Below, piece after piece: positions 6,603 to 17,119 of a DNA stretch of 35,803 nucleotides. Below the pieces are notes generated by a model. It was not told the origin of the DNA and ran no database searches. It was given only the letters and a program-made list of their open reading frames with translations. This DNA is from Candidatus Nezhaarchaeales archaeon (lineage in GTDB: Archaea > Thermoproteota > Methanomethylicia > Nezhaarchaeales > JAWCJE01): the NCBI GenBank assembly GCA_038853715.1, contig JAWCJE010000009.1, positions 29,413 through 65,215 of the forward strand, read 5' to 3'. The position numbers and the translations under genes were made by a program. The stretch's first letter is position 1, and the number at the start of each line of letters is the position of its first letter.

Positions 6603-8201
6603 TTACCGATAGGCCGGTGCTACATCGGCTAACGGAGCGTCCTGAACGTAGCTTCTACCAGTTAGGAGGGCTAGCTCGGCTTTAGCTAGTTCAAGGCCTA
6701 AGTAAGCGGCATGTGAAAGCTCAGATACTAATTGAAGCTTCACTAGGGTTTTATATAGGGAGTTTGCTTCACGGCCCTTTACCACTAAATCCGGCTTAGG
6801 GCTCCCTAATGGGTAATGTATAACGGCTATTTCACCGTTAACCCTGTCTATGGCGATCTTAAAGTAACCCTTAGCATCCGCTTTTACCCTCTCCTTGGGG
6901 GTTTTAACGGCTTTAACGACCTTAGCTTCAACCTCCACGGAGGCCTCGTAGGGCACCTCCTTAAACCTCTTCTCCTTAAGGGCTAGGAGGCTTAACTCGA
7001 GGTCTTTGGGGGGAGAGCCGCGTTTAGCGGCTAAAGCCATCATCCTAGTCGCTATGGATGCTTCTCGTACCGCGTTTCGGGTTTTAACGCTTCCCTCCGT
7101 AGTTAATACTAGCGCTACTCCTAATTCTTGAGCTATTCCGATCATTAATGCGTTTACGCCGATGCTATCAGCATCTATAAGCTCCGTTACGTTACCGATG
7201 CCCATTAGGAGCGGGATTTGGGGATTACGCTTGGAGAACTCGTAGTAGGCTATTAGTGACTCAGTAAGGCTTGGTGAGTTTATAGGGTCAAGGATTAAAT
7301 CTCCCAGCAACCTGGTTATCCCCATACGTTTGGCTAGGGCTATGTTATCCTCAAGCATTTTAACCCGCGTATCAACGTCCTTAGGATAAAAGCCCTCCGT
7401 ATTGTCGGCCGGTATTACAACGAAGGCTACCTCCTCGTTTAAGCCTTTAAGCTTCTGAATATTGCTTCGCTCGAGGCTTATAACCATGTCCACGCCGTGC
7501 TTTAATGCTTCATCTATTTCATCGGGGTTTAAGGTATCTATACTAACCGGAAGCTTAACGGCGTGTTTAACGGTGCTTATTAAGCGCTTAACCTCCATGG
7601 GCTTAGGGTTCTCAGCTAGCATACCTAGGTCTATTATATCGGCTCCTTCCGATGCGTATTGAACCGCTTTACGCTTTAACTCGGCGTTGGAGAGGACGGG
7701 CGCGTTTAGTATTTCAGCTACCACTTTAACCCTTAAACCTCTACCAACAACTACTCTTGCTTCGCCATTACCTATCATTAGGCAGCCTTCTTCAGGCTTT
7801 AAAGACTTCTCGTACAGGTCTAAAGCTTTAAGCTCTTTAAGCATTAAGCTACGCGCTTCGGTTTCTATCACCTTGCAGGCTGGTACTTCCTTAGAAAGTT
7901 TTACTCTATCTAAAGCCTTCAATACTAATGGTAGGTCTGCCGCATACCTAGGGCCTTTAAAGGTAGGTATGCCAATGGCTTTCTCAACGATTGAAACGTC
8001 CCCTTCAATGAGGCCCGGTGTTAACACTAGGTCGAAGCCTAAAGGCTTCTCCTTTTCAAGTTCACGGGCTATGTAGGCCGGGCTCATTAGGGCGGCTACT
8101 GGTATTGGTAGAGCCTTAACACTAAATTCAACACCGCTCTCCATAGCGTACGTACGAACTATATTCTCCGCCAGCATCCCGGTTATAAGTAGAACCCTCA
8201 C
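6603..8201 (-). CDS. Dihydropteroate synthase-like protein of the H4MPT pathway
   Basis: This 532-residue protein has three parts. Residues 1 to about 140 form an N-terminal alpha/beta domain (MRVLLITGMLAENIVR) typical of archaeal DHPS-like proteins. Residues from about 150 to 390 form a TIM-barrel pterin-binding domain, with ASEGADIIDLGMLAENPKP and LPVSIDTLNP resembling the dihydropteroate synthase barrel. The C-terminal domain (GYFKIAIDRVNGEIAVIHY, then HAAYLGLELAKAELALL and YVQD) resembles the DUF4346 module. Family members occur in H4MPT-making archaea and probably bind a methanopterin precursor, but I do not claim an exact reaction. The start is GTG, four bases after the stop of the preceding flavin/Fe-S reductase gene and nine after a GGAGGG ribosome site inside it. 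Translation is probably coupled. Confidence 0.85.
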   Translation of the reverse strand: MRVLLITGMLAENIVRTYAMESGVEFSVKALPIPVAALMSPAYIARELEKEKPLGFDLVLTPGLIEGDVSIVEKAIGIPTFKGPRYAADLPLVLKALDRVKLSKEVPACKVIETEARSLMLKELKALDLYEKSLKPEEGCLMIGNGEARVVVGRGLRVKVVAEILNAPVLSNAELKRKAVQYASEGADIIDLGMLAENPKPMEVKRLISTVKHAVKLPVSIDTLNPDEIDEALKHGVDMVISLERSNIQKLKGLNEEVAFVVIPADNTEGFYPKDVDTRVKMLEDNIALAKRMGITRLLGDLILDPINSPSLTESLIAYYEFSKRNPQIPLLMGIGNVTELIDADSIGVNALMIGIAQELGVALVLTTEGSVKTRNAVREASIATRMMALAAKRGSPPKDLELSLLALKEKRFKEVPYEASVEVEAKVVKAVKTPKERVKADAKGYFKIAIDRVNGEIAVIHYPLGSPKPDLVVKGREANSLYKTLVKLQLVSELSHAAYLGLELAKAELALLTGRSYVQDAPLADVAPAYR

Positions 8202-8205
8202 GGCA

Positions 8206-8943
8206 TTAAGCCCTCCGTTTAACTATGGAGTTTAAAGCTTCCTCAATCTCCATAGGGTTCCTCAACACTATGGTCCCCTCCATCCTCTTCAACCTCTCCA
8301 CATTTTCGAGGTCAATCTTCCTTGGCTTCACCTTTATCACCCTGCCAACGGTAATTGCGCCGTAGGGACAGCAAGGCAAACATAGGCTACAACCCGTACA
8401 CTTAAGCAGGTCTATGGACGCTTTACCCTCCACCATCGATATGGCGGAATACTTACAACCCTCAATAGCGCTACAGACCTTACAACCTTTACAGGTATCT
8501 CTATCGACCATGTGGGGTAGACTGGTTTCGATGTAGCCAAGATCTTGATCCGTAGGCACTACGATAACGGGGGTGCCGCTCTTTTGGGCGTGGGCAACCG
8601 CGTTAGTAACGAGGTTATCGGTTATCCCGTTTACTATTTTAGCTACCGTGTTAGCGGTAGCCGGAGAAACTACGAGCGCTTTATATACACCTCTAGCAAG
8701 CCTCGCCGATTTAGGGTAACTGGATCCTTGAGTATCATCAGTGAATATTTCGCTTAAATAGCCTCCTCGAGCAACCTCCTTAAGCTTATCGAGTAGACCG
8801 TACATCCTGACAACTTCTAAACCGGCTGCCGAAAGGAATACTGTAATCTTAAAGTTATGCTTCTTAACGAGGTTAAGCATCACGTTAAAGGTTTCAGCTA
8901 AATAATGACCAGCCCCCGTAATCGCCCAAGCTATATTATTAAT
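8206..8943 (-). CDS. Flavoprotein/ferredoxin, dihydromethanopterin reductase (DmrX)-like
   Basis: An FMN flavoprotein domain followed by two [4Fe-4S] clusters, as in dihydromethanopterin reductase (acceptor), which reduces dihydromethanopterin to H4MPT. The flavoprotein part shows VVSPATANTVAKIVNGITDNLVTN. The iron-sulphur part shows CKGCKVC followed by a fourth Cys, and CTGCSLCLPCCP. The first ATG/GTG pair at 8878-8883 would begin at VMLNLVKKH. However, the same frame continues upstream with AWAITGAGHYLAETFN, the expected first strand and FMN loop of this family. No ATG, GTG or TTG lies between there and the mptD stop at 8956. An ATT at 8941-8943 follows a GGGGG ribosome site by eight bases, so I placed the start there, giving 245 residues. 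The next gene downstream is the DHPS-like protein. Confidence 0.82.
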   Translation of the reverse strand: MNNIAWAITGAGHYLAETFNVMLNLVKKHNFKITVFLSAAGLEVVRMYGLLDKLKEVARGGYLSEIFTDDTQGSSYPKSARLARGVYKALVVSPATANTVAKIVNGITDNLVTNAVAHAQKSGTPVIVVPTDQDLGYIETSLPHMVDRDTCKGCKVCSAIEGCKYSAISMVEGKASIDLLKCTGCSLCLPCCPYGAITVGRVIKVKPRKIDLENVERLKRMEGTIVLRNPMEIEEALNSIVKRRA

Positions 8944-8955
8944 GGTGATAACCCC

Positions 8956-9369
8956 CTAAGGTTTATTGATGCTTTCCACCTTCTCTACGTAGGCTAACGT
9001 ATACTTCATCCTTGGAATGTAGCGCATCCTTCCTATCGCCCTAAAACCGCCGTATTTGGATACGACATGTATATCAAGCATATGCCCCTTAATAGTATCG
9101 TAATCGTAGGGATGCTTCTTTGAGCCTTTAATAAGCCGCGTTCTTATCTTAACGCTCACCTTCTCCTTAAAAGGTTGGAGGGAGAAGGCCTTCTCGATCG
9201 TTGATTCCACAGCCCTCAACAACCTCTTATCCTTGGAGATCGGTAACCCTACGACTTGGTGATAGATAGCGCCGAGACATACCCCGGCCTCAAAAATCGC
9301 CCTCTCCCGATCAGTTATGGTTTTATCGAAAAACCTCTTAGCTTCATCAGGCTCAGCCGATGAATCCAT
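8956..9369 (-). CDS. mptD: 7,8-dihydroneopterin aldolase, archaeal type
   Basis: The 137-residue product matches the archaeal MptD (DHNA) family, which splits 7,8-dihydroneopterin to 6-hydroxymethyl-7,8-dihydropterin and glycolaldehyde in methanopterin synthesis. The signature is DRERAIFEAGVCLGAIYHQVVG at residues 20-41, containing the likely catalytic E27 and H37. Later conserved segments include YDYDTIKGHMLDIHV and GRMRYIPRMKYTL. It is unrelated in fold-sequence to bacterial FolB. It lies between mptE and the DmrX-like gene in the same orientation. The latter begins about a dozen bases after the mptD stop and in the same frame. Confidence 0.9.
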   Translation of the reverse strand: MDSSAEPDEAKRFFDKTITDRERAIFEAGVCLGAIYHQVVGLPISKDKRLLRAVESTIEKAFSLQPFKEKVSVKIRTRLIKGSKKHPYDYDTIKGHMLDIHVVSKYGGFRAIGRMRYIPRMKYTLAYVEKVESINKP

Positions 9370-9654
9370 ACTACTAACCTCGCGTCCACTCCCTTATAGG
9401 GCTGGGTGCGTTTAAATGATCTTGATTTAACCGCTTAGGTTTAAGCCTAAAGTGTTTACGCTGGCTTAAGCTACGTCGTGCTTGGGATTTAGGGCATGCA
9501 TTAACTGATGTGTAGGTTGTTGAGGTTTGACGGTATTCATCCCCGTTGGAGGCGTTTACACGATTAATGCTTGAGGGGCTAATGAAGCTGTTAAATATCT
9601 TAAACCTAGAGTTATGATCCTTACACATTACAAGGTGAAGTGGCTTAAACGCGT
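9370..9654. other. Intergenic gap of 285 bases within the pterin operon
   Basis: No credible gene is visible. A short hairpin, TTAGG-TTTAAG-CCTAA, is at about 9437-9452. A minus-strand open frame across most of the gap has a low-complexity Ser/Asn/Arg composition and no family features. I see no tRNA or C/D-box pattern. The gap is unusual because neighbouring genes in this cluster are spaced by only a few bases, so mptD may have its own promoter here. Confidence 0.4.
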
Positions 9655-10425
9655 TTAGAAGTTATTTAAGAGTTCTGAGGCCTTAATGTTTTTAAAGCCC
9701 AGTATATGGCTTGTACCGGTGATGTTGAAGAGCTTCGCCTTAGACCTTGATGAAAGCCATTCTAAAAGCTCTTTAGCTACTTCCAGCTTTTTGGCTTTAA
9801 CCTGGCTAGCTTCAACATGGTCCTTTAACCACGGTTTAGAGTACCTCCCTACTACGCGTCCTAGGTCCATTCCCGCAAGGATGATTATGGAGGCTCCCAT
9901 TGTTTCAGCTATGAAAACGGCTCTATCCCCGTCGGTGAAGCCTCCAAAATTATACACGTTGGGTGGCGGTTTAACCTGAACGGATCCAATCACGTGGCCC
10001 TTTAAAATAGGTACGTACCGCTTAACCAGGTCGATGTTATCCCCGTGGGCGTGTACTACAGCTATGGAGCCTAGCCTACAGGCTTTAACCACGTAATTGA
10101 CCCCGCCGTCTAAGTCTGTTACTATGACCCTTGGAATCAGGTTTCGATCTAATGTAGCCCTAGTAGCTCCATCCGCGGCTACCAATACCACCCTATCGGT
10201 AATCCCGGATAACATTAGGTCGTGAAGGTTTGATTCAAGTGAGGGGCCAGCTCCTAAAACAACTACTGCCTTACCCTGTAATCTCTCTTTAAGCGTGGAT
10301 ATGCCTAGCCTCTCGCCCCTTAGAAGGCTGCTTAAGATGTGTGCTGCTTCCTCGTCCTTTTTAACGTCGTAGCCGAAGGTCTTAACTATCTTCTCGTAGA
10401 AGGGTAACCACTCGTTAAAATCCAA
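9655..10425 (-). CDS. mptE: 6-hydroxymethyl-7,8-dihydropterin pyrophosphokinase, archaeal type
   Basis: MptE transfers pyrophosphate from ATP to 6-hydroxymethyl-7,8-dihydropterin, activating it for coupling in methanopterin synthesis. It belongs to the DUF115 family, not to bacterial FolK. Visible conserved blocks are VVVLGAGPSLE at 54-64, ADGATRATL at 84-92, VTDLDGG at 102-108, HAHGDN at 125-130, and NFGGFTDGDRA at 159-169, followed by the C-terminal GMDLG region. At 256 residues it is a normal archaeal length. The start is a TTG ten bases after the mptA stop, with AAGG a few bases before it, so mptA-mptE is a two-gene unit. Confidence 0.92.
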   Translation of the reverse strand: MDFNEWLPFYEKIVKTFGYDVKKDEEAAHILSSLLRGERLGISTLKERLQGKAVVVLGAGPSLESNLHDLMLSGITDRVVLVAADGATRATLDRNLIPRVIVTDLDGGVNYVVKACRLGSIAVVHAHGDNIDLVKRYVPILKGHVIGSVQVKPPPNVYNFGGFTDGDRAVFIAETMGASIIILAGMDLGRVVGRYSKPWLKDHVEASQVKAKKLEVAKELLEWLSSRSKAKLFNITGTSHILGFKNIKASELLNNF

Positions 10426-10435
10426 GGCGATAACC

Positions 10436-11365
10436 TTAACCTAGAACCTCCCTTCTAAGCTGGCCTAAGGACGTATTTCTTACGGCTACTAAATCGTGTT
10501 TATGTACGCTTTCCCTACTTCTTATCGATAGGCGTACCTTTACATCGTCGGGGAAGTGCTTAAAGTGGTCTACGACCCCCTTAGCCATAAGCCTAATGGA
10601 GTCCTCTACGAAGCGCGGGTTACTCATGGCCGTAAGGACTAATGCTACCTCGTCCTTCCTTTTTAGGAGTTCGAAGGTTGAAGCGCTTAAAGCCTTCTCC
10701 ACTATTCTTATTAGGTCGGTAACATCGACGTTGAAGCCTTCAGGCACCTCAATCATAGCCTCCCCTTCACTACGTTGCATATGGGTTGCGATGGGTAGCC
10801 TATTAATTAAGGTTCGCGCCTGATCCTCGACGTAATTAAGGCTTTCAGAGGCTTCCTTTACTGAGGCCTCTTGGAGGGCCTCTCTAACACATGGGCATGC
10901 GGTTATTCCTATAACCTTAACCCCCACCATTTTCCTCGTTTCAATCTTTGAGTTTAAGAGCTTTGAGGTTGCTCCAGCCATTACCTCATAGGGTTCATAG
11001 GTTAGCATTCCGGTTTGCGGCGTCCTACGCTCGAAGATAGCTTCAGCTCTCGCTTTAACCTCGGCTCTACTAGCGTACTCATGCCTCTTTAATAGTTCCT
11101 CCGCTATTGCCGCGCATATATCTTCGATCTTTAAAACCTTCTTCGCGAACGCGTTAAAGACCTCCGCTATTACCTCGTAGCTTCTCGAAGCATCTATGCC
11201 GCGCCTTTCAGCTGGTAGGTCTATGTATACGTCGAAGGAGGGGACTATTACTACGTCTTTACCTTCGAACTTAGTGAAGCTTAAAGGCATCTTAATCCCG
11301 GTTAGCCCAACTTTCTCCAACGGGATCTGTACGGTCGGCCTCTCTCCATGTACGTCTCGAGACAC
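10436..11365 (-). CDS. mptA: GTP cyclohydrolase MptA
   Basis: MptA is an Fe(II)-dependent GTP cyclohydrolase of the FolE2 superfamily that makes 7,8-dihydroneopterin 2',3'-cyclic phosphate, the first step of methanopterin synthesis. Recognisable blocks are DLPAERRGIDASR at 49-61, VKVIGITACPC with C157 and C159, and ATHMQRSEG around H195. The C-terminal half has the second cyclohydrolase lobe with NPRFVEDSIRLMAKG. The length of 309 residues is typical. The GTG start opens the minus-strand pterin operon and faces the plus-strand DUF447 gene across a 126-base gap. The cyclic phosphodiesterase (MptB) that follows in the pathway is not in this window. Confidence 0.93.
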   Translation of the reverse strand: MSRDVHGERPTVQIPLEKVGLTGIKMPLSFTKFEGKDVVIVPSFDVYIDLPAERRGIDASRSYEVIAEVFNAFAKKVLKIEDICAAIAEELLKRHEYASRAEVKARAEAIFERRTPQTGMLTYEPYEVMAGATSKLLNSKIETRKMVGVKVIGITACPCVREALQEASVKEASESLNYVEDQARTLINRLPIATHMQRSEGEAMIEVPEGFNVDVTDLIRIVEKALSASTFELLKRKDEVALVLTAMSNPRFVEDSIRLMAKGVVDHFKHFPDDVKVRLSIRSRESVHKHDLVAVRNTSLGQLRREVLG

Positions 11366-11491: not shown

Positions 11492-12136
11492 ATGAGGAGA
11501 AGAGGTTTAGCTAAATACGGCTTTATACCCGGGGCCGTAATGGAGGCCGTGGTTTCAACTTGTGATGAGGACGGTAGGCCTAACGCCGCCCCTATGGGTG
11601 TTACGAGCGGGGATTTACGTACACTTATTATTAGGCCCTACCTTAATACGACCACCTATAGGAACTTGAAGGTTAGTAGGTGTGCTGTGGTAAATATAAC
11701 GTTAGATCCGTGGCTCTTCTACATAACGGCTTTAAAGGAGGTAAACCCTGAGGGGGTTTTACCTTTAAAGCTCTTCGATAAAGCCGAGAAGGTTAAGGCG
11801 CCTAGGCTTAAGGATGCCCAAGGCTTCATAGAGGTAAACGTAATCGACATTAAGGAGGTAGGTAAACGCGGGATCGTAAAATGCGAAGTAGTATACGCTA
11901 AAGCTAAGAGGATGCCGGCTAGGTTGTACTGTCGTGGAGCCTATGCGGCTATAGAGGCCGTCATTCACGCTACGAGAGTTAAGGAGGCGTTAGCCGCGGG
12001 TAACGTGGAGGAGGCTATGAGGCTTGAGGGGCTCATTAAGTACTATCGAGACCTCGTTAGAAGGGTTTCGAGGGGGACTACCTATGAGGCCGTGATTGAA
12101 GGCCTACTTAACCTCATTAAACGCTGGAGGGGTTAA
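11492..12136 (+). CDS. DUF447-family protein, probable flavin-binding split barrel
   Basis: A 214-residue member of the DUF447 family, whose N-terminal half resembles FMN-binding split-barrel proteins. Visible pieces are VMEAVVSTCDEDGRPNAAPMGV near residues 17-38, TTYRNLKVSRCAVVNIT near 53-69, and a mostly helical C-terminal half rich in Arg and Glu. The family co-occurs with H4MPT genes in archaea and in bacteria that use H4MPT, but its reaction is not known to me. Here it opens the plus-strand operon and diverges from mptA, which supports a role in pterin or deazaflavin cofactor metabolism. The next gene starts nine bases after its stop. Confidence 0.85.
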   Translation: MRRRGLAKYGFIPGAVMEAVVSTCDEDGRPNAAPMGVTSGDLRTLIIRPYLNTTTYRNLKVSRCAVVNITLDPWLFYITALKEVNPEGVLPLKLFDKAEKVKAPRLKDAQGFIEVNVIDIKEVGKRGIVKCEVVYAKAKRMPARLYCRGAYAAIEAVIHATRVKEALAAGNVEEAMRLEGLIKYYRDLVRRVSRGTTYEAVIEGLLNLIKRWRG

Positions 12137-12145
12137 GGCGGTTTG

Positions 12146-13375
12146 ATGGGTGATAGGCTAGCCCTTAAGGGGTGGAGGGTTGTCGTCGGAGACGGCATGG
12201 AGGTTCTAAGCGAGTATTACGTAGTTCTGAAAGGCACTAGTATAACGCGTATATGTAGTAGTAGACCGGTAAACGTGGGGAGGGTTGTAAAGCTCGACGG
12301 GTGCGCTATTATACCTGGGCTTATAAACGCGCACGTCCACCTTGGGGATGCGGGGTTTAAGGACGTAGGTATTGGGCTTGGTTTAAATGAACTCTTTAAA
12401 CCATACAGCGGTTTAAAGCATAAACTGCTTTCATCTTGCTCCGATGGGTACCTCGTTGAGGCGATGAAGAAAGCGCTACTAGACATGATGAAGGGAGGGA
12501 TCACCCTCTTCGCTGACTTTAGGGAGGGAGGGGTTGGGGGGGTGAACCTTCTGCTTCGGGCCTTGAAGGATGTAAGGATTAAAGGCTTAATCCTTGGAAG
12601 GGTCGATTACGCCTTTAGTTTAAGGAGGTTGAGGGTTAATAAGGGGGGCTACCCAAGCCGAGCTTTAAGGGTTTTGAAGAAGTTGGTTAAGGTAGCGCAT
12701 GGAGTAGCTCCGAGCGGGGCTAACGAGTTAACTGATGACGCGCTTAAGCAGTACGCTGAAGCGGCTAAGGGCTTGTTAAAGGCGATTCATGTATCTGAAA
12801 ACCCGATGGGGCGTGCGTTATCGGTTAGAAGGACTGGGTTAACTGAGGTGGAGCGGGTATTAAGGTACTTTAAGCCTAGCTTTTTAGTACATTTAACCTA
12901 TGCCTCCGACGAGGAGCTAAGGATGGTTTATGACCACGGCGTACCCGTGGTTTGCTGTCCGAGGGCTAATGCTTTATTAGGGTTGAAGCTACCGCCGATA
13001 CCGATGCTGCTTAAGCTAGGTGTATGCGTTGCGCTTGGAACCGATAACGTCATGATAAACCCCCCGAATATGTTTAGGGAGATGGAGTTCGTTCTTAAAG
13101 CTTATTCCTCCTTGGGCTTCAAGCTGCAGCCTCGCGAAGTTTTAAAGCTGGCAACGATAAATGGCGCTAAAGCCTTAGGCTTAGGAGGGGAAACTGGATC
13201 TATAGATGCTGGGAAGAGGGCTGATTTAACGGTGATAGATTTTAGCGATGAAAACTTAAGCTATTCCCATGACGTAGTCGCGTCAATAGTTAATAGGGCT
13301 GAGGCTAAAAACGTTAAAGCCGTACTGGTTGATGGGGGGGTTGCGTATGATCGAGATTCAGAGCTTGAACTCTGA
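12146..13375 (+). CDS. Metal-dependent amidohydrolase (deaminase-type), substrate unknown
   Basis: A cytosine deaminase/TRZ-type amidohydrolase of 409 residues with a small beta-sandwich at both ends and a TIM barrel in the middle. Metal and catalytic positions are all present (numbering counts a TTG codon immediately before this ATG): H64 and H66 in NAHVHLGD, H216 in AIHVSEN, H250 in LVHLTY, and D301 in ALGTDN. The C-terminal GSIDAGKRADLTVIDF is the usual closing strand pair. I chose the ATG at 12146 over the adjacent TTG at 12143. Its end overlaps the arfC start by 29 bases, and cofG and cofH follow. Because ArfC's product must be deaminated before the CofH substrate is formed, deamination of that pyrimidine is a plausible but untested function. 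Confidence 0.88.
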   Translation: MGDRLALKGWRVVVGDGMEVLSEYYVVLKGTSITRICSSRPVNVGRVVKLDGCAIIPGLINAHVHLGDAGFKDVGIGLGLNELFKPYSGLKHKLLSSCSDGYLVEAMKKALLDMMKGGITLFADFREGGVGGVNLLLRALKDVRIKGLILGRVDYAFSLRRLRVNKGGYPSRALRVLKKLVKVAHGVAPSGANELTDDALKQYAEAAKGLLKAIHVSENPMGRALSVRRTGLTEVERVLRYFKPSFLVHLTYASDEELRMVYDHGVPVVCCPRANALLGLKLPPIPMLLKLGVCVALGTDNVMINPPNMFREMEFVLKAYSSLGFKLQPREVLKLATINGAKALGLGGETGSIDAGKRADLTVIDFSDENLSYSHDVVASIVNRAEAKNVKAVLVDGGVAYDRDSELEL

Positions 13376-14045
13376 GGAGTATGAGGATAGACCCTACGTT
13401 ATTTTAAGCGCTGCTATGACCCTAGACGGGAAGATAGCTACTAAAACGCGTGACTCGAAAATCTCATGCATCGAGGATTTAAAACGCGTCCATAAGTTAA
13501 GGGCTAGCGTGGACGCGATAATGGTGGGGATAGGTACCGTTCTCATCGATGACCCTAAGCTACTGGTTAAGTACTATGAAGGTAGAAACCCGATTAGGGT
13601 GGTCGTTGATAGTAAAGCTAGAATTCCGTTAAACGCTAAGGTGATAACGGAGGGAGGGGCGCGTACCGTGGTAGCCGTTACGGACTTAGCTCCGATAAGT
13701 AAGGTTGAAGAATTGAAGAGGGTGGGCGTGGAGGTGGTCGTAGCTGGATCCGGGGAGGAGGTTGACTTAAAGCTTTTAATGAGGAAACTGAGGGCTATGG
13801 GTGTTCGAACTTTAATGCTCGAAGGGGGGGCTACGCTTAACTGGAGCATGGTTAAGGAGGGGTTAATTGATGAAGTAAGGGTTGCTATCGCTCCTGTAAT
13901 CGTTGGCGGGAGGGACGCGCTTTCCCTCGTTGAAGGTGAAGGGTTTAATTACGTGGATGAAGGTCTTAAGCTTAAACTTGAACGAGTTGAAACCTGCGGA
14001 GAGGATTTAGTATTATATTACAAGGTTCAACGTCGTCAGAATTAG
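13347..14045 (+). CDS. arfC: 2,5-diamino-6-(ribosylamino)-pyrimidinone 5'-phosphate reductase
   Basis: A stand-alone RibD C-terminal (dihydrofolate-reductase-like) domain that reduces the ribosyl side chain to ribityl with NAD(P)H in archaeal riboflavin and F420 precursor synthesis. Visible signatures are ILSAAMTLDGKIAT near the start, VDAIMVGIGTVLIDDPKL, RNPIRVVVDS, and LMLEGGATLNWSMVKEGLIDEV followed by the IAPVIVGG motif. I place the start at the ATG 13347, which has a GGGGGG ribosome site seven bases before it. An in-frame TTG at 13329 would add six residues. It overlaps the amidohydrolase by 29 bases. The length of 232 residues is close to archaeal relatives. There is no fused deaminase domain, so a separate deaminase is required. 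Confidence 0.92.
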   Translation: MIEIQSLNSEEYEDRPYVILSAAMTLDGKIATKTRDSKISCIEDLKRVHKLRASVDAIMVGIGTVLIDDPKLLVKYYEGRNPIRVVVDSKARIPLNAKVITEGGARTVVAVTDLAPISKVEELKRVGVEVVVAGSGEEVDLKLLMRKLRAMGVRTLMLEGGATLNWSMVKEGLIDEVRVAIAPVIVGGRDALSLVEGEGFNYVDEGLKLKLERVETCGEDLVLYYKVQRRQN

Positions 14046-14092
14046 GCTGTAGCGGGATCAGTAAGAAGTTTGAGAATGCATTATTTGAAGCG

Positions 14093-15211
14093 GTGGAGGG
14101 TAAGGTTGATCGTTACACGGCTCAAGTATTAATAAACGCCCAAGCGAAGGAGGTTTTAGTTTTAATCCTCCTAGCTAACCTTATAAGGGATAGGTGTAAA
14201 GGGCCTATTGTAAGCTTCTCTAAGAAGGTATTTATACCGTTAACTAACGCGTGCCGTAATAGATGTGCTTACTGCGGGTTTAGAAGGGATTTCCCTGAAG
14301 CTAAGATACTTAGGCCTAAAGAGGTTTTAACGATAGCTAAGGATGGGAAGAAGCAGGGCTGTAGAGAGGCACTCTTCACCATGGGGGAGAAGCCTGAGGA
14401 AGCATACTGGGAGGCTAGGAAAGCCCTACGTGAAATAGGTTATTCCAGCATCGTTGAATACCTACGTGACGCCTGCGAGCTCGTTATCAGGGAAACTGGC
14501 TTACTTCCACATAGTAACCCGGGCGTTCTAAGTAGGGATGAAGTACGCCTATTAAAGGAGGTAAATGCGAGCTTGGGCCTCATGCTTGAAAACTCGAGCG
14601 TAAGGTTATGCGGTAAAGGGATGCCCCATGAGCTTAGCCCAGGTAAACATCCTGAGGCTAGGGTTAGAACCATTGAGGCGGCGGGCATGGAACGCGTAGC
14701 CTTCACCACGGGGATACTGATAGGGATAGGGGAAACCTTAGAGGAGCGCGTAGACTCCCTCCTAACAATACGTAGCCTCCACGAGAAGTACGGCCATATA
14801 CAGGAGGTTATCGTGCAACCGTTTAAAGCTAAACCCGGAACCCCTATGTCAAACCGCCCGGAGCCGAGCATAATGGATTTAGCGAAAACCATCGCGGTGG
14901 CGCGTATACTACTACCTATCGACGTAAACGTTCAAACCCCTCCAAATTTAAGCTTAGGCTACTGCAAACTACTGCTTAAAGCCGGGATCAACGATTGGGG
15001 CGGTATATCACCGGTAACCAAAGACTTCATAAACCCCGAGTATCCATGGCCTAGCGTAAGCGGGCTTAAAAGGATTACGGAGGAGGCGGGGTTAACCCTT
15101 AAGGAGAGGCTACCCATATACCCGGACTTTATTAGGAAGGGTTACCTCCCTGACTCTTTAAGGGGGATAGTAGCTGAGCTTGTTGATAAGGATGGCTACG
15201 TTAAGGAGTGA
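14093..15211 (+). CDS. cofG: 7,8-didemethyl-8-hydroxy-5-deazariboflavin synthase subunit CofG
   Basis: A radical-SAM enzyme that completes formation of Fo, the deazaflavin chromophore of F420, from the CofH product. The [4Fe-4S]/SAM motif is C54-RNR-C58-AY-C61, in the block PLTNACRNRCAYCGFRRD. Later family blocks are GEKPEEAYWEAR, NPGVLSRDEV and the C-terminal NDWGGISPVTKDF. The only standard start is the GTG at 14093 (372 residues). The frame upstream continues with family-like sequence (KKFENALFEAVEGK) back beyond 14060, with no ATG, GTG or TTG. The real start may be an ATT at 14012, which follows GGAGAGG by about seven bases. The gene sits between arfC and cofH in one operon. Confidence 0.93.
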   Translation: MEGKVDRYTAQVLINAQAKEVLVLILLANLIRDRCKGPIVSFSKKVFIPLTNACRNRCAYCGFRRDFPEAKILRPKEVLTIAKDGKKQGCREALFTMGEKPEEAYWEARKALREIGYSSIVEYLRDACELVIRETGLLPHSNPGVLSRDEVRLLKEVNASLGLMLENSSVRLCGKGMPHELSPGKHPEARVRTIEAAGMERVAFTTGILIGIGETLEERVDSLLTIRSLHEKYGHIQEVIVQPFKAKPGTPMSNRPEPSIMDLAKTIAVARILLPIDVNVQTPPNLSLGYCKLLLKAGINDWGGISPVTKDFINPEYPWPSVSGLKRITEEAGLTLKERLPIYPDFIRKGYLPDSLRGIVAELVDKDGYVKE

Positions 15212-15234
15212 TGGATGTGGAGGGTGATTAAGGA

Positions 15235-16359
15235 TTGCTTGAAGGAGTATTAAAGGATTTAGATCCTATAGTTACTGAGGCGTTATGGAAGGCTATCGAG
15301 GGTAAGGAGTTAAGCGTAGAGGATGGGTATGAGCTCTTTAAGGTTAAAGGGGCGGAACTATTAGCCCTAATCGTCGTAGCCGACGAGGTAAGGCGTCGAA
15401 CCGTTGGCGACGTAGTAACCTACGTAGTGAATAGGAACATAAACTTCACTAACATATGTACTATCCGTTGTAGTTTCTGCGCGTTTAGTAGGCCTATGGG
15501 CGATCCTGAAGCTTATTTATTAAGCGTTGATGAGGTAGCTAAAAGAGCTGAAGAGGCCTTAAGGATGGGTGCTACCGAGGTATGTATACAGGGCGGGATC
15601 CATCCGCGTATCGATGCCAATTTCTACGCGGCGATATGCCGTGAGGTGAAGAAGAGGGCGCCGGGCATTCATATACATGCCTTTTCACCTATGGAGGTAG
15701 TTTACGGGGCTGAGAAAAGCGGTTTAAGCATTGAGGAGCATTTAAAAATGCTTAAAGAAGCTGGGCTGGATAGCCTACCTGGAACTGCCGCTGAGATACT
15801 TGACGACGATGTTAGAAGGGATCTATGCCCCCTGAAGATAGACGTCGATACTTGGGTTAGGGTGATTAAAGTCGCTCATAGGCTTGGTATACCGACCACC
15901 TCCACGATGATGTATGGACATATTGAGGGGATTAAACATCGGGTAAACCACCTAAAGCTGCTTAGGGACATCCAGAAAGAGACCATGGGTTTCACGGAGT
16001 TCGTCCCCCTTACCTTCATACACTTTAACACGCCGATCTACCTAAAGGGTAAGGCGCGCGCCGGAGCTACCGGTATTGAGGACGTTAAGATGTACGCGGT
16101 TTCAAGGTTGATGCTGAACGGCTACATTAACAACGTACAGGTTTCATGGGTAAAGCTAGGCGTGAAGTTCGCTCAGTTCTGTTTAAACGCTGGAGCGAAC
16201 GACTTCGGAGGGACGCTTATGGAGGAAAACATTAGTAGAGCCGCTGGAGCTACAACAGGGCAGTACTTACCGCCTGAGGAAATTAGGAGGATTATTAGGG
16301 ATGCCGGCAGGATCCCTGCGCAGCGTGACACCCTTTACAATATTATAAGGACGTGGTAA
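15235..16359 (+). CDS. cofH: 5-amino-6-ribitylaminouracil-tyrosine transferase CofH
   Basis: A radical-SAM enzyme that joins tyrosine-derived hydroxybenzyl to 5-amino-6-ribitylaminouracil, the step before CofG in Fo synthesis. The cluster motif is C75-TIR-C79-SF-C82 in NFTNICTIRCSFCAF. Other family blocks are ATEVCIQGGIHP, HIHAFSPMEV, GLDSLPGTAAEILDD and NAGANDFGGTLMEENISRAAG. The length of 374 residues is typical. The start is TTG, eight bases after a GGAGGGTG ribosome site. An in-frame TAA six bases before it rules out an earlier start. It follows cofG by 23 bases, so the two Fo synthase subunits are made together. Confidence 0.95.
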   Translation: MLEGVLKDLDPIVTEALWKAIEGKELSVEDGYELFKVKGAELLALIVVADEVRRRTVGDVVTYVVNRNINFTNICTIRCSFCAFSRPMGDPEAYLLSVDEVAKRAEEALRMGATEVCIQGGIHPRIDANFYAAICREVKKRAPGIHIHAFSPMEVVYGAEKSGLSIEEHLKMLKEAGLDSLPGTAAEILDDDVRRDLCPLKIDVDTWVRVIKVAHRLGIPTTSTMMYGHIEGIKHRVNHLKLLRDIQKETMGFTEFVPLTFIHFNTPIYLKGKARAGATGIEDVKMYAVSRLMLNGYINNVQVSWVKLGVKFAQFCLNAGANDFGGTLMEENISRAAGATTGQYLPPEEIRRIIRDAGRIPAQRDTLYNIIRTW

Positions 16360-16375: not shown

Positions 16376-17119
16376 GTGCGTGAAAGATTGGAACAGTTAA
16401 AGTACGCAGCCCTATTTACGGGCGGTAAGGATTCAACGCGGGCTATCCATTGGGCTTTAGACGCGGGCTTAAACGTTAAGTACTTAGTTACCATGATCCC
16501 GGAGAGGATCGATTCCTGGATGTTCCACGCATCGACGTTAAACGTAACCGATTTAGCAGCTGAAGCACTTGGAATACCGCTTGTAAAGGGGAAGACTAAG
16601 GGGGTGAAGGAGGAGGAGGTTGAGGATTTAAAAAACGTATTGGCTAAGCTCGACGTTGACGGCGTAATTAGCGGCTCCGTAGCTAGCGTCTACCAGAAAA
16701 GTAGGCTTGAACGCATATGTAGAGAACTCGGTTTAAGGTTGTTAACGCCCCTCTGGGGGTATGACCAGGAGAAATTAGTTGAAGAGGTATTAAGGCTAGG
16801 GTACGACGTATTGATAGTGGCGGTCTCAGCTTTAGGTTTAGATGGACGATGGCTGGGTAGGAGGCTGGATCAGCAAGCCTTTACTGAGCTGAAAAAGCTT
16901 CATGAGAAATACGGGGTGAGTTTAACGTTTGAAGGAGGGGAAGGAGAAACATTGGTCTTAGACTGCCCAATATATAGGAAACGGTTAGAAATCTTAGAGT
17001 ATGATACGGTTTGGGATGGGAGGGCGGGCTACTTAATAGTAAGAAAAGCTAGATTGGTGGCGAAAGGAAGCCTATATTGGCGTGAAACGGGAGGAAAAGT
17101 TATGGAAGGTCTTAGTTAA
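16376..17119 (+). CDS. Diphthine-ammonia ligase family ATPase (Dph6-like)
   Basis: An ATP_bind_4 family protein of 247 residues. The PP-loop FTGGKDST is at 14-21 and the family hallmark GGEGETLVLDCPIY is at 187-200. The best-known members amidate diphthine on elongation factor 2 using ATP and ammonium, the last step of diphthamide synthesis. The gene starts with GTG sixteen bases after cofH and is probably in the same transcript. This neighbourhood raises the chance of another role, but nothing in the sequence sets it apart from Dph6. The following purA start lies about 50 bases downstream. Confidence 0.87.
   Translation: MRERLEQLKYAALFTGGKDSTRAIHWALDAGLNVKYLVTMIPERIDSWMFHASTLNVTDLAAEALGIPLVKGKTKGVKEEEVEDLKNVLAKLDVDGVISGSVASVYQKSRLERICRELGLRLLTPLWGYDQEKLVEEVLRLGYDVLIVAVSALGLDGRWLGRRLDQQAFTELKKLHEKYGVSLTFEGGEGETLVLDCPIYRKRLEILEYDTVWDGRAGYLIVRKARLVAKGSLYWRETGGKVMEGLS

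What the first reader, a model, noticed from the sequence alone, without database searches (positions are those of the whole stretch)
12146..16359. Amidohydrolase overlapping arfC and followed by cofG/cofH: candidate missing deaminase
Seen: an intact deaminase-type amidohydrolase (H64, H66, H216, H250, D301) overlaps arfC by 29 bases, and cofG and cofH follow in the same operon. Known: in archaea ArfC reduces the ribosyl side chain first, so a separate deaminase must act next before the diaminouracil substrate of CofH is formed. ArfC here has no fused deaminase domain, and I know of no generally assigned archaeal enzyme for this step. Inferred: the amidohydrolase may carry it out. The position is exactly where such an enzyme would be useful. 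Alternative substrates such as a nucleoside or a pterin are possible.
Basis: partly seen in the sequence, partly recalled or inferred. Interest (0 to 1): 0.7.

Follow-up and report, generated by a model that had tools for sequence, protein, structure and literature searches.

The report
Archaeal riboflavin/F420 pathway deaminase candidate
The gene next to arfC, now labelled "chlorohydrolase", is very probably the enzyme that removes an amino group in the archaeal route to vitamin B2 and coenzyme F420, a step that has no experimentally proven enzyme in archaea that I could find, although a 2017 study had already proposed candidates that appear to belong to the same family.

Summary
A 410-aa amidohydrolase with intact metal and catalytic residues overlaps arfC by 29 bases, and cofG and cofH follow. 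It belongs to NCBIfam NF005552 ("chlorohydrolase"). Among 151 near-complete Thermoproteota genomes, all 42 with a strong family member have arfC, against 30 of 109 others. No genome has a RibD deaminase domain. The gene is adjacent to arfC in 30 of the 42. In several others it lies inside riboflavin operons (ribB-ribC-ribH-arfA-amh, or arfC-arfA-ribB-ribC-ribH-amh). Thirteen of the 42 genomes lack CofH, so the gene tracks the shared riboflavin/FO trunk rather than F420 or radical SAM by-product clearance. The same genome has two separate MTA/SAH/5'-deoxyadenosine-deaminase-type paralogs. Residues D69, K92, R274, N302, P308 and R385 mark the pathway-linked clade and are absent from those paralogs. 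The likely role is deamination of the ArfC product by an enzyme unrelated in fold to RibD and Rib2. Novelty is limited: HVO_2483 and MJ0699 were predicted for this step in 2017 (as cited in PMC8305020), and both organisms carry a strong NF005552 member. No activity is shown.

The parts
12143..13375 (+). Amidohydrolase, NF005552/PRK07213 family; proposed 2,5-diamino-6-ribitylamino-4(3H)-pyrimidinone 5'-phosphate deaminase (alternative start 12146)
13347..14045 (+). arfC, archaeal pyrimidine nucleotide reductase; overlaps the amidohydrolase by 29 bases
   Evidence: TIGR01508 256.5 bits over cut-off; overlap
14093..15211 (+). cofG, FO synthase subunit 1
   Evidence: TIGR03550 460.5 bits
15235..16359 (+). 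cofH, FO synthase subunit 2
   Evidence: TIGR03551 541.9 bits
11492..12136 (+). DUF447 (PF04289) flavin-reductase-like protein, first gene of the apparent operon, a few bases before the amidohydrolase start; role unknown
16376..17119 (+). dph6, diphthine-ammonia ligase, 16 bases after cofH; probably co-transcribed, unrelated function
   Evidence: TIGR03679 265 bits

Best explanation
The gene encodes a mononuclear metal-dependent TIM-barrel aminohydrolase of the cytosine/guanine-deaminase type. It removes the 2-amino group of the ArfC product, 2,5-diamino-6-ribitylamino-4(3H)-pyrimidinone 5'-phosphate, giving 5-amino-6-ribitylamino-2,4-pyrimidinedione 5'-phosphate. After dephosphorylation this feeds CofH/CofG (to FO and F420) and, in organisms that have it, lumazine synthase (to riboflavin). 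It thus does in most of the arfC-bearing archaea examined what CDA-fold RibD (bacteria) and Rib2 (fungi) deaminases do elsewhere. Shown here: family, intact catalytic residues, predicted fold, operon membership, co-occurrence with arfC, absence of a RibD deaminase. Inferred: the substrate, the reaction, and phosphate binding by family-specific basic residues.
For: Linkage: 73 of 80 named loci hold arfC, and in 71 it is the next gene downstream on the same strand (70 by the automatic count plus L085, where the arfC hit was split); two of the other seven adjoin cofG/cofH. Co-occurrence in 151 Thermoproteota genomes: arfC in 42/42 with a strong family member versus 30/109 without (Fisher 4e-18 by genome, 4e-5 by taxonomic family); all 29 genomes with CofH over cut-off have it. 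Riboflavin operons: ribB-ribC-ribH-arfA-amh (f27), arfC-arfA-ribB-ribC-ribH-amh (f24), ribB-ribH-arfA-amh-arfC (f12), the rib genes divergent from amh (f11), arfA-amh (f36). Thirteen of the 42 lack CofH over cut-off. No RibD deaminase half in any genome. A pathway-linked residue signature absent from MTA/SAH-type paralogs, and those paralogs set apart by a branch with 100/100 support. Model pLDDT 95.6, closest to AtzA/TrzN, adenosine deaminases and the isocytosine-specific deaminase Vcz; isocytosine carries the 2-amino-4-oxo-pyrimidine moiety of the proposed substrate. HVO_2483 and MJ0699 are listed as predictions between arfC and the phosphatase gap, and both organisms plus M. acetivorans have NF005552 members at E<=1e-60.
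Against: No enzyme assay. Eleven of 72 arfC genomes show no recognisable member (f9, f10, f31, f40, part of f30), and G116 has the gene without arfC at E<=1e-25. In the window's own genome neither GTP cyclohydrolase III nor a convincing lumazine synthase was found, so its upstream step is unexplained. Bacterial relatives (L072, L083, L093) sit in other contexts.
Confidence: 0.85

Rival explanations
1. It is a 5'-deoxyadenosine (or MTA/SAH) deaminase that clears the by-product of the radical SAM enzymes CofG and CofH.
For: Same superfamily; radical SAM genes are downstream; the 5'-deoxyadenosine deaminase model NF005557 gives a weak hit (116 bits against a 522-bit cut-off).
Against: The same genome has two paralogs (L001, L002) scoring 443-492 bits to PRK06038 and 355-366 bits to the 5'-deoxyadenosine deaminase model. 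The gene persists in riboflavin operons of genomes without CofH. Sequence signature and tree separate the groups.
Confidence: 0.04
2. It replaces ArfB, removing the formyl group from the GTP cyclohydrolase III product, rather than deaminating.
For: It sits directly after arfA in several operons; the superfamily includes amide hydrolases.
Against: Its residues (HxH, HxxE, H, D) are those of mononuclear aminohydrolases, and the nearest folds are mostly deaminases and s-triazine hydrolases. M. jannaschii, whose formamide hydrolase is described (cited), also has a strong family member. The window's genome shows no GTP cyclohydrolase III at all.
Confidence: 0.05
3. It acts on a pterin, guanine or another nucleoside and is linked to methanopterin synthesis, since MptA/MptE/MptD genes lie just upstream.
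For: mptA, mptE, mptD and a dihydromethanopterin-reductase-like gene are at 8206-11365.
Against: Those genes are on the opposite strand here. In the pathway-linked loci annotated elsewhere the partners are arfC, arfA, ribB, ribC, ribH or cofG/cofH.
Confidence: 0.04

Closest known systems
NCBIfam NF005552 / PRK07213 'chlorohydrolase'
   Same: Full-length match over the curated cut-off; same conserved residues.
   Different: The name looks like a guess by analogy with AtzA/TrzN; nothing here supports dechlorination.
Predicted archaeal riboflavin deaminase candidates HVO_2483 and MJ0699 (Rodionova et al. 2017, as listed in PMC8305020)
   Same: Same proposed pathway step, judging by table order; both organisms carry a strong NF005552 member.
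   Different: I could not read the original paper or these two sequences, so identity with the family is inferred. The arfC-cofG-cofH arrangement and the survey here are additional evidence.
RibD N-terminal / fungal Rib2 deaminase (CDA superfamily)
   Same: Same type of reaction; Rib2 acts on the same reduced substrate (PMC8256712).
   Different: Unrelated fold: HxE/PCxxC zinc site versus the amidohydrolase TIM barrel.
5'-deoxyadenosine / MTA / SAH deaminases (PRK07228, PRK06038)
   Same: Superfamily and catalytic residues.
   Different: The ones examined here lack D69, K92, R274, N302, P308 and R385.
Isocytosine-specific deaminase Vcz (7ww2/8is4) and guanine deaminases
   Same: Fold (TMq about 0.8) and a 2-amino-4-oxo-pyrimidine target in the substrate.
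   Different: About 20% identity; no known link to this pathway.

Membership tests
NF005552 / PRK07213 | Whole-protein score over curated cut-off (294 bits) | tested here: met
   343.3 bits
Amidohydrolase-superfamily deaminase | HxH, HxxE, H, D metal and catalytic residues in a TIM barrel | tested here: met
   H64, H66, H216, E219, H250, D301 invariant; predicted fold matches deaminases
Archaeal DARIPP deaminase (riboflavin/FO trunk) | Co-occurrence and operon linkage with arfC and the riboflavin genes | tested here: met
Archaeal DARIPP deaminase (riboflavin/FO trunk) | Deamination of the ArfC product | not testable with these tools
   needs purified enzyme
Archaeal DARIPP deaminase (riboflavin/FO trunk) | Present wherever arfC is used without RibD | tested here: inconclusive
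   61 of 72 arfC genomes have a member by signature, model match or family kinship; 11 have none found
RibD/Rib2 CDA-type deaminase | RibD N-terminal deaminase domain | tested here: not met
   ArfC has RibD_C only; all TIGR00326 matches in 151 genomes begin at position 118 or later
5'-deoxyadenosine / MTA / SAH deaminase | Match over the curated models' cut-offs | tested here: not met
   107-116 bits against cut-offs of 522-609
Published candidates HVO_2483/MJ0699 | Same protein family | tested here: inconclusive
   H. volcanii and M. jannaschii ring for NF005552 at E<=1e-60, but the two locus tags could not be matched to the hits

The most novel reading that the evidence does not exclude
Archaea evolved a TIM-barrel deaminase for the riboflavin/F420 trunk independently of the CDA-fold enzyme of bacteria and fungi, and in the window's lineage the operon serves only FO synthesis, starting from a GTP-opening enzyme other than GTP cyclohydrolase III, with the amidohydrolase possibly also doing the deformylation.
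Probability: 0.08. Interest if true: 0.75.

Novelty: new member of a known kind. Interest (0 to 1): 0.55.

Why it matters
I found no proven enzyme for this deamination in archaea, although the pathway order (reduction before deamination) was published in 2002. The survey gives a strong, directly testable assignment, would correct the misleading "chlorohydrolase" name on a large archaeal family, and would add a clear case of one vitamin-pathway step being solved by two unrelated protein folds.

Tried and rejected
The key 2017 paper is not held, and paper searches for ArfD, MJ0699 and HVO_2483 gave nothing beyond PMC8305020. Reaching M. jannaschii or other Euryarchaeota genomes through L052 failed because only that one genome was returned. 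I looked among the neighbours of arfC in lineages without the amidohydrolase for another deaminase and found none (Glycos_transf_3, QueT, PUA, AdoHcyase, DUF359 and others). The sigma-70/terminator scan found no more than shuffles and is not suited to archaea. Model coordinates are not released, so the pocket could not be inspected. The deoxyadenosine-deaminase, ArfB and pterin rivals were considered and rated low.

Full report
Observation. The amidohydrolase (12143-13375, or from 12146) scores 343 bits to NF005552, over its cut-off. ArfC, CofG and CofH are each over the cut-off of their specific models. The 29-base overlap holds if ArfC starts at the ATG at 13347. ArfC is a single RibD_C domain.

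What the protein is. Metal and catalytic residues are intact (H64, H66, H216, E219, H250, D301). An AlphaFold2 model built with 33 sequences has mean pLDDT 95.6. Its closest solved structures are AtzA, TrzN, adenosine/MTA-type deaminases and the isocytosine-specific deaminase Vcz. It is not one of the MTA/SAH/5'-deoxyadenosine deaminases: this genome has two proteins of that type elsewhere (L001, L002). Across the relatives examined, D69, K92, E128, R274, N302, P308 and R385 mark the pathway-linked clade with few exceptions (for example L157, L158 and L194 each depart at one or more sites; the bacterial relatives have R at 92), and none is found in the MTA/SAH-type group. In a maximum-likelihood tree that group is set apart by a branch with 100/100 support.

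Linkage. In 80 named relatives from one scan, arfC is present in 73 loci and is the next gene downstream in 71 (70 by the automatic count plus L085, where the hit was split). L037 and L089 adjoin cofG/cofH instead. That sample is dominated by Nitrososphaerota, but the same holds for Bathyarchaeota, Hecatellales and Asgard records. Gene order differs between lineages (amh-arfC, arfC-amh, arfA-amh, ribH-amh), so the association is not one inherited arrangement.

Co-occurrence. I cross-tabulated by hand two searches of the same 151 Thermoproteota genomes of at least 90% completeness. Strong matches (220 bits or more) occur in 42 genomes of nine families, and all 42 have arfC. Of the other 109, 30 have arfC and 79 do not. 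Fisher's test gives 4e-18 by genome and 4e-5 by family; the genome-level value ignores relatedness. arfC is directly adjacent in 30 of the 42, and 2.6 kb away in one more (G057). Adding divergent members found with a wider model, and taking two f18 genomes by kinship with their tested relatives, 61 of 72 arfC genomes have the gene. Exceptions: eleven arfC genomes without a recognisable member, and G116 with the gene but no arfC at the threshold used.

Which branch of the pathway. CofH over cut-off occurs in 29 of the 42 genomes, so 13 have the amidohydrolase and arfC without CofH. Weaker CofH-like hits elsewhere look like the menaquinone enzymes MqnC/MqnE; that reading is inference. In CofH-less families the gene sits in riboflavin operons: ribB-ribC-ribH-arfA-amh in four f27 genomes, arfC-arfA-ribB-ribC-ribH-amh in f24, arfA-amh in f36, and divergent from the rib genes in f11. 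This places it in the trunk shared by riboflavin and FO and argues against a radical SAM clean-up role.

Mechanism. Established knowledge: archaea, like fungi, reduce the ribosyl chain before deaminating (PMC13028884, PMC8256712). No RibD deaminase half was found in any of the 151 genomes at E<=1e-15. The proposed substrate carries a 2-amino-4-oxo-pyrimidine, the same moiety attacked by guanine and isocytosine deaminases of this fold. Inference: the metal-bound water attacks C2 with E219 and H250 assisting, and family-specific basic residues hold the ribityl phosphate.

Prior knowledge. PMC8305020 says three gaps remained in the haloarchaeal riboflavin pathway, with candidates for two from Rodionova et al. 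2017. HVO_2483, with MJ0699, is listed between arfC and the phosphatase gap, which fits the deaminase step. H. volcanii, M. jannaschii and M. acetivorans each have an NF005552 member at E<=1e-60, and haloarchaeal plasmid copies carry nearly all of the signature. It is likely, not proven here, that the published candidates are this family. The assignment is therefore best described as strong independent support for an existing prediction that I found no experimental test of, extended to lineages where the gene sits with cofG/cofH.

Open points. The window's genome (95% complete) shows no GTP cyclohydrolase III and no convincing lumazine synthase, so the operon may serve FO synthesis only, or genes may be missing from the assembly. 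Lineages with arfC but no family member need another explanation.

Noticed in passing
window 6603-11365, - strand: A divergent methanopterin-synthesis cluster: dihydropteroate-synthase-like (TIGR00284), dihydromethanopterin-reductase-like (TIGR02700, just under cut-off), DHNA/MptD-type, MptE-like and MptA.
   Followed up: partly
G000 (the window's genome): No GTP cyclohydrolase III (PF05165) and only a weak lumazine synthase hit, although arfC, cofG and cofH are present; the GTP-opening step is unexplained.
   Followed up: partly
L072, L083, L093: Bacterial relatives (Acidimicrobiia and Gemmatimonadetes bins) with K92 changed to R and N276 to H, near a CN_hydrolase and another amidohydrolase in L093, and MmgE/PrpD, aminotransferase and dioxygenase genes in L083; possibly a degradative deaminase.
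   Followed up: partly
L172, L176, L177: arfC homologs in lineages lacking the amidohydrolase lie beside Glycos_transf_3 (nucleoside-phosphorylase-like) genes or a QueT transporter gene; they may serve a different pathway.
   Followed up: partly
G116 / L185:6929-8089: A signature-bearing family member in a single-contig genome without arfC at E<=1e-25, although congeners have arfC.
   Followed up: no
L052:7996-9213: The family gene in this Euryarchaeota bin is split into two ORFs by an internal stop or frameshift.
   Followed up: no
L018-L025, L027, L029: MTA/SAH-type amidohydrolase genes in related lineages are often next to dph6, which in the window follows cofH.
   Followed up: no
L199, L200, L201: Haloarchaeal family members (338-350 aa) are carried on plasmids, including pNRC200 of Halobacterium, close to gas-vesicle genes.
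   Followed up: partly
window 11492-12136: A DUF447 protein precedes the amidohydrolase by a few bases in the same orientation; its role in the pathway is unknown.
   Followed up: no
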